Origin: Formosa sp. Hel1_33_131
GTDB taxonomy: Bacteria; Bacteroidota; Bacteroidia; Flavobacteriales; Flavobacteriaceae
Assembly: GCA_949499105.1 (NCBI GenBank)
Contig: CATEFX010000019.1
Span: 124,001-188,000, forward strand
Length of the DNA: 64,000 nucleotides
Reading direction: 5' to 3'
Of the stretch, positions 24,193 to 43,120 are shown in pieces. Made by a program: the position numbers and the translations under genes. How positions within the stretch are numbered: the stretch's first letter is position 1; each line of letters opens with the position of its first letter. The notes beneath the pieces were generated by a model. That model saw only the letters and a program-made list of their open reading frames with translations, had not been told where the DNA came from and made no database searches.

Positions 24193-25359
24193 TTAATTTG
24201 TTAAATAATTAATAACCGCAGTTTGTACGTAATACATTTTTACAGATTCCACCTGACTCATTTGAAACTTCAATTGCAACTCTTGAATGTCAAGCACGTC
24301 GTTAAAATCGATTGTTCCCGTTTCATAGCTTTTAATTAAAATATCTTCAGCATTCTTGGCTTGATTTAGGTTTTTCACTTGCGTATTATAGCTTATTCGT
24401 GCACTAATACGTTGTTTTAAAGCTTTATCTAAAAGTGTTTCCAAGTTGTTTAATCGTTGTTGTTTTTTGAAGGTTATTGCTTGTTTTTGGAGCGTATTTT
24501 GTTTAGTCCTAGATTTGTATTTAGTATTAAAAATTGGAATCGAAAGGGACACCATTGGCATCAAAATATCTTTTCCATTATCGCTAAAATTTACATCGGG
24601 GCGTTTTTCAACATTGACATAATCCAACCCAAATCCAAACATTGGACTGCTTTGCTTTTGGTTTAATAATTCTGATTTTTCAACGGATTCGTAAAGTTTA
24701 TCATACTTTAATAACTCAGGATGTAGGGTCAATTTATCGGCATGCATATCAATAGTATGTTCTGGGATTTTTAAATAATTAATTACTTTGAATGCGATGT
24801 CTTTGTCCCGATTGAGATGTTTATTGAAGTTGGTTTGTTCTGCCAAAAAGTCGTGTTCTAAAACCTGATTGAGTTGCTTCAATTCATTTTTTCGTATCTG
24901 CAATCGCAACACATCTACCACCGAAGCTTTTCCAACTTCCACAGAAGTTAATGCTAGGGTTTCATAGGTTTTAAGTAATGACATATTTTCGACTAAAATC
25001 GTTTGTTTCGCTTTCAATGCATAGAGCTTATAATAAGACTGCGAAATAGATGCAACCAATTTTCTTTTAGCAATGGCTACATCTACATACACGGCATCTG
25101 CCAAAGACGTTGCATAGTTTTCTCTGGCGGTAATAGCACCAAACGAAGGCAGCATTTGTTTAGCAGACACTTTGAAGCGTTGTGCTCCTGTTCTTGTCTC
25201 TGGTTCACTGACAAAGTAGCCCACTCCAATTTGTGTATTAGGCAAGGTGTTTGCTTCGTTTACTTTTTCGGTAGCAATGCTATATTGCAATTCAAATTTT
25301 TGAATTTCTGGATTATTCTTTAATGCTACATCAATAAGTGTTTCTAACTGCTGAGCACT
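24193..25359 (-). pseudogene. TolC family outer membrane factor, 5'-disrupted (no signal peptide or ATG)
   Basis: The frame continues past the TTG at 25290 as SAQQLETLIDVALKNNPEIQKFELQYSIATEKVNEANTLPNTQIGVG, then enters the GTGAAAA repeat array with no ATG. Confidence 0.6.
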
Positions 25360-25740
25360 TATAGAGTGAAAAGTGAAATAGTGAAATAAACTACCTTTTT
25401 TAAGTGAAAAGTGAAAAGTGAAAAACTTGAATCCATTGATTTCTTTAAGAGAAAAGTGAAAATCGAAGTATTGAAAAGAGTGACCTTTTTTAAGTGAAAA
25501 GTGAAAAGTGAAAAAATAAATAGGGTTAATCTTTTTAAGTGTAAATTGAAAAGTGAAAAACGATAAGATTGTTGCCTCTTTGTTTCAAACTCCTCACTTA
25601 TCCCGATCAACTTTACACTTTTAACTAAACACTTATCACTTTTCACTTTAAGCTTATCACTTTTAACTAAACACTTATCACTTTTCACTTTAAGCTTATC
25701 ACTTTTCACTTTCAAAGTATCACTTAACTCTTCTAGCTCT
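25359..25740. repeat. GTGAAAA / TTTTCAC degenerate short-repeat array, opposite orientation in its two halves
   Basis: Left half has aagtgaaaagtgaaaagtgaaaa units (around 25401 and 25491); right half has ...cacttatcacttttcactttaagcttatcactttt... The ORF 25359-25745 (LKVKSDKLKVKSDKCLVKSDK) is its translation. Confidence 0.85.
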
Positions 25741-25746
25741 TTCATA

Positions 25747-26097
25747 TTATTTTCTTTTAGCTGTTTTAATAGAACTCACTAACATTGCTACTAATTCTTT
25801 ATTTAATTCAAAAAGACTTTTGTATTGCTTCTCATCAATATATTTAGTGTCTTTTAGCAAATCCAACCAATACAATGATTCATTAGCTTCTTTAAGAGAA
25901 ATACTCAATTTATGTATAAAATCTGCTTTACTTTGCCCGAATTCAGCTTCTCGGATTAACGCTCCAACAGCAGTTCCACTTCTTAAAAGCTGTTTACTTA
26001 AAACATATTCTTTCTTGACAGAAACTAATCGTTGAGAAAGCTTTACAATAGAAACTGCAAAAGCATAACTTTTAATTTTTAAAATACTTTCACCCAT
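25747..26097 (-). CDS. Four-helix-bundle protein (S23/23S rRNA intervening-sequence protein, Avd-like)
   Basis: KSYAFAVSIVKLSQRLVSVKKEYVLSKQLLRSGTAVGALIREAEFGQSKADFIHKLSISLKEANESLYWLDLLKDTKYI is typical of the family. Confidence 0.9.
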   Translation of the reverse strand: MGESILKIKSYAFAVSIVKLSQRLVSVKKEYVLSKQLLRSGTAVGALIREAEFGQSKADFIHKLSISLKEANESLYWLDLLKDTKYIDEKQYKSLFELNKELVAMLVSSIKTAKRK

Positions 26098-26124
26098 AAC
26101 ATTTACTTTTTATTTATTTCAAAT

Positions 26125-26178
26125 TTTCAACTATTCACTTCTCACTTCTCACTTTTATCTTTTCACTTTTTCACTTCC
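26125..26178. repeat. Second TTTTCAC-type repeat patch flanking the four-helix gene
   Basis: ttcacttctcacttctcacttttatcttttcactttttcacttcc. Confidence 0.75.
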
Positions 26179-27752
26179 AACTCTTGCTTCCAACTATACA
26201 ACACTGGAACCACAAACAAGCTGATTAACGCAATGAGCATACCTCCAAAACTCGGAATCGCCATCGGAATCATAATATCACTTCCGCGACCGGTGGATGT
26301 TAAAATCGGCAACAATGCCAAAATCGTAGTTGCCGTGGTCATTAGGCAAGGTCTGATTCGTTTTTCTCCTGCTTCGACAATAGCGGCTCTAATTTCCTTT
26401 TTGTTTTCAGGGGTATTTCGTTCAAAAGTTTGTTTTAAATAGGTCGCCATGACGACACCATCGTCAGTAGCAATTCCGAAAAGTGCAATAAATCCAACCC
26501 AAACCGCCACACTCAGATTGATGGGATGCATCTGGAATAAATCGCGAAGATTTTCACCAAACACATCAACATTTAAAAACCAATCTTGACCATAGAGCCA
26601 TATCATAATAAAACCACCTGCAAATGCGACTGCAATTCCCGTAAAAACCATGAGTGAAGTCGCTACAGAGCGAAACTGAAAGTATAGAATTAAAAAGATA
26701 ATGAGTAACGCAAGCGGTACCACCACCGATAAAGTTTTTTCTGCACGCAATTGATTTTCATAAGTTCCTGTAAATTGGTAATTAATCCCTTTTGGAACGA
26801 TGAGCGCTCCTGAATCTATTTTGGATTGAATAAGTGCTTGTGCATTTTCAACGACGCTTACTTCTGCAAAACCATCCAACTTATCAAACAAAACATAACC
26901 AACTAAAAAGGTATCTTCACTTTTGATGACTTGTGGCCCTTGTTCGTAACGAATGCTTGCCAATTCGCTTAAAGGCACTGGACTTCCTTTTTCCACAGGA
27001 ATGTATATCTGCTTCAAATCGGTTGGATTCCCTCTTAATTCTCTTGGGTAACGCACCCGAATGCCATAGCGTTCTCGACCTTCAATGGTTTGCGTGATTC
27101 CCATCCCACCTACAGCTACTTTAAGCACATCCTGAACCGCTTGAATGCTGATGCCATAACGAGCAATTTTTTCTCTATCAATATCGATAAGTAGGTAGGG
27201 TTTCCCGACAATTCGGTCGGCATAGACTGCCTGCTGTTTCACGCCCTCGGCTTGTTTTAATAGGGTTTCTAATTGCAATCCAAAGGCTTCGATTTCTTTT
27301 AAGTCCTGTCCTTTTACCTTGATGCCCATTGGCGCACGCATCCCAGTTTGAAGCATGACCAATCGGGTTTCAACCGGCTGAAGTTTTGGAGCAGATGTGA
27401 CACCTGGTAATTTGGTAACACGTACGATTTCATTCCAAATATCATCTGGGGATTTAATTTCTGGACGCCAATTACGGTAAAACTCTCCATCATCATCTTT
27501 TATTAATTGAGACCTTTCTACTGTGCTTAATGTGACATTTTCTGAATTGTTGGGATTTGCAGAAAAACGCCCATCTTTCAATTCAAAAAAACCAGCAGTA
27601 TTTACTTTATAACGCTGGCGATTGCCGTTTTCATTCAGCATGAATTCTGATTTGTATTGATAAACAGTTAAATATGACTGTTTTAGATTTATTTGCTGGA
27701 TCTGGAGGATTATCTCTTGGGTTTGAAGCACAAGTGTAAAATAAATTGCCAT
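26163..27752 (-). pseudogene. cusA: CusA/CzcA-type RND heavy-metal efflux pump, C-terminal half only
   Basis: SPDDIWNEIVRVTKLPGVTSAPKLQPVETRLVMLQTGMRAPMGIKVKG...ATDDGVVMATYLKQTF...IRPCLMTTATTILALLPIL; only 529 aa of a family normally exceeding 1000 aa; the first ~30 residues are antisense to a methyltransferase fragment. Confidence 0.85.
27674..27739 (+). pseudogene. Remnant of a C5-cytosine DNA methyltransferase N-terminus (motif I)
   Basis: ATG ACT GTT TTA GAT TTA TTT GCT GGA TCT GGA GGA TTA TCT CTT GGG TTT GAA GCA CAA GTG TAA = MTVLDLFAGSGGLSLGFEAQV*. Confidence 0.6.
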
Positions 27753-42572: not shown

Positions 42573-42920
42573 GGGATCAGTAATTATAAAATTGAATAAA
42601 ACACTTCTTACCCTATCGCTTGCGCAAGTGCCTCGCTTGTGTCTTTAATCACAATCAAAGAATTTATGGTCTTATTACATTTATTACTCAATAACTTGTA
42701 AGCTTACTTATCGTAATGGGCACGAGCAAAAGATGCTCGCGCTAGCTGGGATCAGTAATCATAAAATTGAATAAAACACTTTCCCTATCGCTGGCGCAAG
42801 CGTCACGCTTGTGTCTTTAATCATAATCAAAGAATTTAAGGTCTTATTACATTTATTACTCAATAACTTGTAAGCTTACTTATCGTAATGGGCACGAGCA
42901 AAAGATGCTCGCGCTAGCTG
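42573..42920. repeat. Tandem duplication (2 x ~175 bp) of a palindrome-rich intergenic unit
   Basis: Units 42573-42747 and 42748-42920, both gggatcagtaat.ataaaattgaataaaacact...ctcaataacttgtaagcttacttatcgtaatgggcacgagcaaaagatgctcgcgctagct. Confidence 0.9.
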
Positions 42921-43120
42921 GGGAAACAAATTAATCGCAAGAGTGTTTGCTGTTGTAAAACGACAAACACCTTATGTAGATATTTTAAAGTACGTAGCTT
43001 AAAATTTTAACAATTTTTACTTGTTTTGATCATAGAATACTGGGGAATATAACACCCCTACTATTTCGAGTAACATCAAAATCATTTTATAAAATTTTAC
43101 CAACCCAAATATATAAAAGC

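What the first reader, a model, noticed from the sequence alone, without database searches (positions are those of the whole stretch)
25359..26180. Four-helix-bundle (S23/IVP, Avd-like) gene bracketed by GTGAAAA/TTTTCAC arrays, inserted between cusA and tolC
Directly seen: on the minus strand cusA runs into the repeat, with its last codons (gaa gtg aaa aag tga) matching repeat sequence. A four-helix-bundle gene follows, then a ~380 bp array in two opposite orientations. A TolC frame then emerges mid-protein (SAQQLETLIDVALKNNPEIQKFEL) with no ATG and no signal peptide. This looks like a discrete ~0.8 kb cassette that split a cusA-tolC arrangement, possibly a translational fusion. From general knowledge, this protein family includes 23S rRNA intervening-sequence proteins and is related to the Avd factor of diversity-generating retroelements. 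Linkage to short GTGAAAA repeats would suggest a poorly described non-autonomous or domesticated mobile unit. That last step is inference.
Basis: partly seen in the sequence, partly recalled or inferred. Interest (0 to 1): 0.72.

Follow-up and report, generated by a model that had tools for sequence, protein, structure and literature searches.

The report
Four-helix gene inside inverted heptamer arrays
A small gene of a widespread but unexplained protein family (S23/IVP) sits in the loop of a long RNA hairpin built from 7-letter repeats; the same layout surrounds most genes of this family in distant bacterial phyla, each with its own repeat word, which points to one unrecognised kind of element related to the intervening sequences of ribosomal RNA.

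Summary
The gene, the arrays and their place between cusA and tolC are real. The array is not peculiar to this locus. In 104 S23/IVP loci of many phyla the flanks have a best period of 7 nt (75) or 8 nt (23). The 3' array is the reverse complement of the 5' array in 76 of 104 loci. The gene is codirectional with both neighbours in 97 of 102 (controls 52-63%). The repeat word differs from locus to locus, yet at one and the same site the two arms change together (p=0.0002 at two sites). Empty junctions exist: one in a close relative of the window's genome at the cus site, and many at a beta-oxidation site. Best reading: IVS-like elements living at operon junctions, a hairpin of heptad arrays with the S23 gene in its loop. 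23S rRNA IVSs, where Coxiella also shows heptamers, would be the rRNA case. At this locus the arrays have invaded both coding ends. In a relative (G124) the array encodes tolC's N-terminus. In this genome the cus operon looks damaged: cusA is N-truncated and tolC lacks an in-frame start. The RNA-level mechanism and S23 binding to the heptads are inference.

The parts
25747..26097 (-). S23/IVP four-helix-bundle gene (116 aa)
   Evidence: PF05635 E=6.8e-26, TIGR02436, 2RLD E=1e-32; dN 0.11, dS 0.80 against the G124 orthologue
26110..26182 (-). 5' heptamer array (GTGAAAA/GTGAGAA), overlapping the last codons of cusA
   Evidence: period-7 island; sequence
25606..25716 (-). 3' array, proximal part, same orientation as the 5' array (AAGTGATAAGC..., 21/42-nt higher-order period)
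   Evidence: TRF, lag-7 island, direct match to the 5' array
25365..25570 (-). 3' array, distal inverted part (TTTTCAC, 45-nt period); pairs with the 5' array and with the proximal 3' array; reads as FSLFTFH in every frame
   Evidence: TRF, inverted score 39 against shuffle mean 22 and 45 against 21, RNA fold
25359..25745 (-). 128-codon open frame made of the 3' array, starting one base after the IVP stop; counterpart of the in-frame tolC leader of G124 but one frame off tolC here
24193..25358 (-). tolC (OEP) reading frame without an in-frame ATG/GTG/TTG before codon 20; native start and signal peptide replaced by array sequence
26163..27752 (-). cusA remnant: C-terminal 529 aa, N-terminal part lost; its C-terminal codons are array sequence

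Best explanation
The thing is one example of a widespread element: an S23/IVP gene enclosed by two arrays of a 7-nt (less often 8-nt) word, the 3' array being the reverse complement of the 5' array, inserted in the sense direction at junctions of transcribed operons. In RNA the two arrays pair into a long stem with the S23 gene in the loop, as in the intervening sequences of 23S rRNA, so the inserted RNA is folded away or cut out by a double-strand RNase and neighbouring cistrons stay usable. The S23 protein (five chains in each solved entry; a homopentamer by publication) most likely binds the array RNA with about 7 nt per subunit. This would explain a fixed period with a free sequence. It helps the element persist and occasionally move or copy to other junctions. 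Shown by sequence: period, inversion, strand bias, sense orientation, operon junctions, empty sites, joint change of both arms, purifying selection on the protein at this site. Inferred: RNA stem in vivo, RNase cleavage, S23 binding, mode of movement. At the window locus the arrays spread into the ends of cusA and tolC; in G124 the array serves as tolC's N-terminus, while in this genome the cus operon appears to be decaying.
For: Period: best lag is 7 (75) or 8 (23) of 104 loci, against 45 of 309 for control pieces; lag excess at 7, 14 and 21 in 29 Flavobacteriaceae genera, in 78 loci of many phyla, in 27 Patescibacteria loci and in most of 10 cyanobacterial plasmid loci. Genome scale: 46 of 110 IVP loci have a 7-mer island within 250 nt; random regions give 1.5 per 100 kb in IVP-bearing and 0 in 400 kb of IVP-lacking genomes. 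Inversion: 76 of 104 above the 99% level of same-spacing controls, direct repeats not. Concerted change of both arms at orthologous sites: p=0.0002 in 29 and in 10 species. Sense orientation: 97/102 against 0.52-0.63. Strand asymmetry: 5' arrays C 9%, G 24%; 3' arrays C 22%, G 11%. Unit mobility: loci at different sites with IVP identity of 60% or more share array sequence in 36% against about 5%. Empty sites: cus and fad junctions, three with arrays but no gene. Protein conserved at this site: dN/dS about 0.14. Coxiella 23S IVS: 28-bp terminal stem, RNase III excision and tandem GACAGAT heptamers before the S23 ORF (PMC4990558).
Against: No expression, cleavage or binding data were available. 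Heptamer arrays also occur without an S23 gene (own genome C18 and C32, G124, acnB 3' region), so arrays are not always tied to the gene. About 6% of loci show neither period 7 nor 8, and a quarter lack clear inversion in the 150-nt flanks; the window's own immediate 3' flank is direct and only its distal part is inverted. No movement event with exact ends or target duplication was seen. In Coxiella S23p appears not to be made (PMC4990558).
Confidence: 0.55

Rival explanations
1. The arrays are ordinary slippage satellites that expand in relaxed intergenic DNA of certain genomes; S23 genes merely lie in such places or tolerate them.
For: Heptamer arrays without an S23 gene exist in the same genomes; other intergenic gaps of IVP loci also show some lag-7 excess (13% against 45%).
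Against: Slippage does not favour period 7/8 over 5, 6 or 9, nor produce inverted partners, a fixed strand bias and joint change of the two arms. Islands are about 50 times denser at IVP genes than in random regions of IVP-bearing genomes and absent from 400 kb of IVP-lacking ones.
Confidence: 0.12
2. A DNA-level mobile cassette: the inverted arrays are terminal inverted repeats used by a recombinase in trans, and S23 is a DNA-binding accessory.
For: Discrete unit with empty sites and patchy occupancy; similar units at different sites.
Against: The ends share no sequence between copies of one genome; no target duplication could be recognised; strict sense orientation (97/102) is not expected of a DNA transposon.
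Confidence: 0.15
3. A fixed regulatory hairpin: the arrays and S23 tune translation or decay of the downstream cistron (operon polarity), kept because useful to the host rather than as a selfish element.
For: Long vertical retention at the same junctions (fad site in 29 species) and purifying selection at the cus site; the period puts stops in all three frames.
Against: Many genera have empty, tight junctions at the same sites; hosts and neighbouring functions vary widely, including cas operons; the repeat word is free to change.
Confidence: 0.18

Closest known systems
23S rRNA intervening sequences (IVS) with S23p ORF (Coxiella, Leptospira)
   Same: S23/IVP gene in the loop of a terminal inverted stem; heptamer repeats next to the ORF in Coxiella (PMC4990558); sense orientation within a transcript.
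   Different: Lies at protein-operon junctions, not in rRNA; long arrays with a locus-specific word; many copies per genome (up to 16).
Heptamer repeats of cyanobacteria and of marine Beggiatoaceae/Bacteroidetes (TAACTGA, PMC4679880; STRR, own knowledge)
   Same: Intergenic tandem 7-mers of variable copy number.
   Different: Here 5' and 3' arrays are inverted partners around an S23 gene; that paper's text mentions neither S23 nor IVS.
Avd of diversity-generating retroelements
   Same: Related four-helix-bundle fold (family knowledge).
   Different: No reverse transcriptase in the genome; Avd model not matched by the window protein.
IVP genes in cas operons (PMC3936711)
   Same: S23 gene between cas genes (cmr3|IVP|cmr2 there; cas6|IVP|cas4 and cmr2|IVP|cmr3 here).
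   Different: That paper treats them as CRISPR-associated; the arrays around these copies suggest the same junction element as elsewhere.

Membership tests
S23/IVP four-helix-bundle family (PF05635, TIGR02436) | profile match over the whole protein above the curated cut-off | tested here: met
   91 bits against 33.8; 102.2 against 24
23S rRNA IVS | S23 ORF enclosed by complementary ends forming a stem | tested here: met
   for the window (predicted fold); 76/104 loci
23S rRNA IVS | located inside the 23S rRNA gene (helix 25/45) | tested here: not met
   lies between cusA and tolC; no Rfam match in the window
23S rRNA IVS | excised by RNase III without religation | not testable with these tools
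   no RNA data
Diversity-generating retroelement (Avd) | reverse transcriptase with template/variable repeats | tested here: not met
   no PF00078 match in the genome (86.6% complete); template/variable repeats were not searched for
Diversity-generating retroelement (Avd) | match to the Avd equivalog model above cut-off | tested here: not met
   window protein not listed; the paralogue scores 28.3 against a cut-off of 80
Insertion sequence / MITE | conserved terminal inverted repeats shared among copies | tested here: not met
   different word at each copy of one genome
Insertion sequence / MITE | target-site duplication at an empty/occupied pair | tested here: inconclusive
   104 bp in G161 correspond to about 800 bp here; the junction was rewritten
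Cyanobacterial-type tandem heptamer repeats | tandem 7-mers, variable copy number, intergenic | tested here: met
   copy number differs at the acnB site

The most novel reading that the evidence does not exclude
S23/IVP proteins define a pan-bacterial class of RNA-level elements in which the protein, not the sequence, fixes a 7-8-nt repeat period: the oligomer reads or builds paired heptad arrays of arbitrary word. rRNA intervening sequences, cyanobacterial and Bacteroidetes heptamer repeats and 'CRISPR-associated' IVP genes are then one phenomenon.
Probability: 0.35. Interest if true: 0.92.

Novelty: new variant of a known kind. Interest (0 to 1): 0.8.

Why it matters
S23/IVP proteins have been known since the 1990s without a function, and tandem heptamers in cyanobacteria, Beggiatoaceae and Bacteroidetes have no accepted origin. 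The link found here makes both testable: predict that S23 pentamers bind RNA with a 7-nt step, that array RNA pairs and is processed, and that heptamer arrays are living or dead S23 elements. It also shows short repeats being taken into coding sequence: in G124 a heptamer array encodes the N-terminus of an outer-membrane protein, and because 7 is not a multiple of 3 each repeat gained or lost shifts the frame while keeping the hydrophobic peptide.

Tried and rejected
RNA duplex energies of 150-nt flanks did not separate own pairs from coding controls because of base composition; local complementarity scores with matched controls were used instead. A strict lag-7 threshold of 0.72 missed the window's own 3' array and was relaxed with other lags as control. 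Stop codons in all frames as the reason for period 7/8: only mildly enriched beyond composition, so not adopted. The single repeat word GTGAAAA as the family mark: rejected, words differ. Retroelement/Avd reading: rejected for lack of RT. Phages as carriers: no match in 50,697 phage records. Rfam: no known RNA family in the window. Using GTGAAAA arrays across the genus to test action in trans: arrays are most numerous in the two genomes found with the window-type IVP, but also occur in others; undecided.

Full report
What is there. On the minus strand, between a cusA remnant and tolC, lies a 116-aa S23/IVP gene (25747-26097). Its 5' side carries a GTGAAAA-type heptamer array (26110-26182). Its 3' side carries first an array in the same orientation (25606-25716) and then TTTTCAC arrays in the opposite orientation (25365-25570). 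These are the only period-7 islands in the 64-kb window. As RNA the stretch folds with z = -3.9, the 5' array pairing with the distal inverted array and enclosing the gene.

The other copies in this genome. The genome has two further S23/IVP genes. One lies between TTAATAC-type heptamers; the other has an 8-mer array (AATTGTGT type) upstream. So each gene has its own repeat word. This turned the question from 'what is GTGAAAA' to 'why does this family live in short arrays'.

Generality. In 29 Flavobacteriaceae genera the flanks show excess self-match at lags 7, 14 and 21 and no comparable excess at other lags. In 78 loci fetched by protein similarity, including Ignavibacteria, Nitrospirae, Geobacter, Gemmataceae, Omnitrophica, Clostridia, Anaerolineae and KSB1 records (names are those of the public records; several are metagenome bins), the result is the same, with a minor 8-nt class. 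Over 104 loci the best lag is 7 in 75 and 8 in 23, against 28 and 17 of 309 control pieces. Twenty-seven Patescibacteria loci behave alike, and so do most of ten cyanobacterial plasmid loci, for example GGGAACA before and TGTTCCC after the gene in Nostoc. Random 20-kb regions contain no 7-mer island in 400 kb of genomes where the family was not found and 1.5 per 100 kb in IVP-bearing genomes; 46 of 110 IVP loci have one within 250 nt.

Inversion and joint change. The 3' flank matches the reverse complement of its own 5' flank above the 99% level of same-spacing controls in 76 of 104 loci; direct matches are at background for most. At one orthologous site in the beta-oxidation operon (29 species) and at another (10 species), the words differ between species but 5' arms fit their own 3' arms better than those of other species (permutation p = 0.0002 each). 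5' arrays are poor in C (9%) and 3' arrays poor in G (11%) on the coding strand. The S23 gene has the direction of both neighbours in 97 of 102 loci; gene triplets in general do so in 52-63%. The strand bias and the strict orientation point to the transcript as the level at which the arrays act; this is inference.

Unit and mobility. When two loci at different sites have S23 proteins at least 60% identical, their arrays are alike in 36% of pairs, against about 5%. In 12 genomes without the family the beta-oxidation junction is mostly a tight 3-30 nt; in three of them short array-like sequence remains without a gene. Up to 16 copies occur per genome. No reverse transcriptase was found in the window's genome, and no phage record carries a close relative.

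The cus locus. In G161 (flanks 97.1% and 95.0% identical) about 104 bp join an intact cusA to a tolC with a normal signal peptide (MKNYNKQFIIKTVIVLCSLFFVLSAKSQ); here about 800 bp lie in that place. Most of the other genera examined have the tight junction; G124 and G002 carry the element, G002 with a decayed S23 gene. G124, at about 76% identity, has the homologous element, so it is older than the G000/G161 split unless recombination moved it. G161 then either lost it by allelic replacement or G000 gained it; the data do not decide. In G124 tolC is open from an ATG at the end of the S23 gene, and its first 80 or so residues are array-encoded (KVKSEK repeats, then a hydrophobic FSLLTFH stretch before SVSG|QQ). 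In G002 the core of the tolC signal sequence is also array-like (VTFSLFTFHFANAQ). In the window's genome the same leader frame is one base off tolC, tolC has no usual start codon, and cusA lacks its N-terminal part, missing with a 5.5-kb stretch relative to G161. The cus operon here therefore looks damaged, although a metagenome assembly error in the repeats cannot be excluded. The S23 gene itself is intact, with dN/dS about 0.14 against G124.

Relation to known things. Coxiella's 23S IVS has a 28-bp terminal stem, is excised by RNase III, and has two to three tandem GACAGAT heptamers before the S23 ORF (PMC4990558). That is the same layout in rRNA. The present elements fail the defining location of an IVS, so they are filed as working like an IVS, not as IVSs. 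MacGregor described TAACTGA heptamers in Beggiatoaceae, cyanobacteria and five Bacteroidetes without an origin and without mention of S23 (PMC4679880). S23 genes inside cas operons were reported as CRISPR-associated (PMC3936711); the arrays around such copies here suggest junction elements. The paper searches found no report of the general pattern, but the library lacks most subscription journals.

Limits. All claims are from sequence. Loci were chosen by similarity score and lean to Bacteroidota and Patescibacteria. Arrays without S23 genes exist. Pairing, processing, binding and the mode of movement need experiments.

Noticed in passing
window 26163-27752: cusA is N-terminally truncated relative to G161 and G124; a 5.5-kb stretch including its N-terminal part is missing, with the junction near 27660-27734.
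   Followed up: partly
own genome C32:16304-16580 (L009) and G161 C16 (L279): A GTGAAAA-type array without an S23 gene downstream of an aconitase-like gene: about 40 units in this genome and about 3 in G161 at the homologous site.
   Followed up: partly
own genome C49:7745-7966 (L002 2770-2992): GTGAAAA turning into GTGGAAA heptamers up to the contig end; repeats of this kind probably break assemblies.
   Followed up: no
window 42573-42922: Two tandem copies of a 172-bp unit (94% matches) found by TRF.
   Followed up: no
L332, L334, L337 (Anabaena, Picosynechococcus, Pseudanabaena plasmids): S23 genes with heptamer or 8-mer arrays between cas6 and cas4 or between cmr2 and cmr3; in Pseudanabaena the arrays are in the same, not inverted, orientation.
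   Followed up: partly
L068 tolC start (G161): The native tolC signal-peptide coding sequence of the empty allele is itself a loose 7-nt repeat (TTGTTCT); chance or a relic is undecided.
   Followed up: no
L236 (Geobacter-type genome G167): S23 gene between 6-nt repeats (GGTAAA / TTTACC), a rare exception to period 7/8.
   Followed up: no
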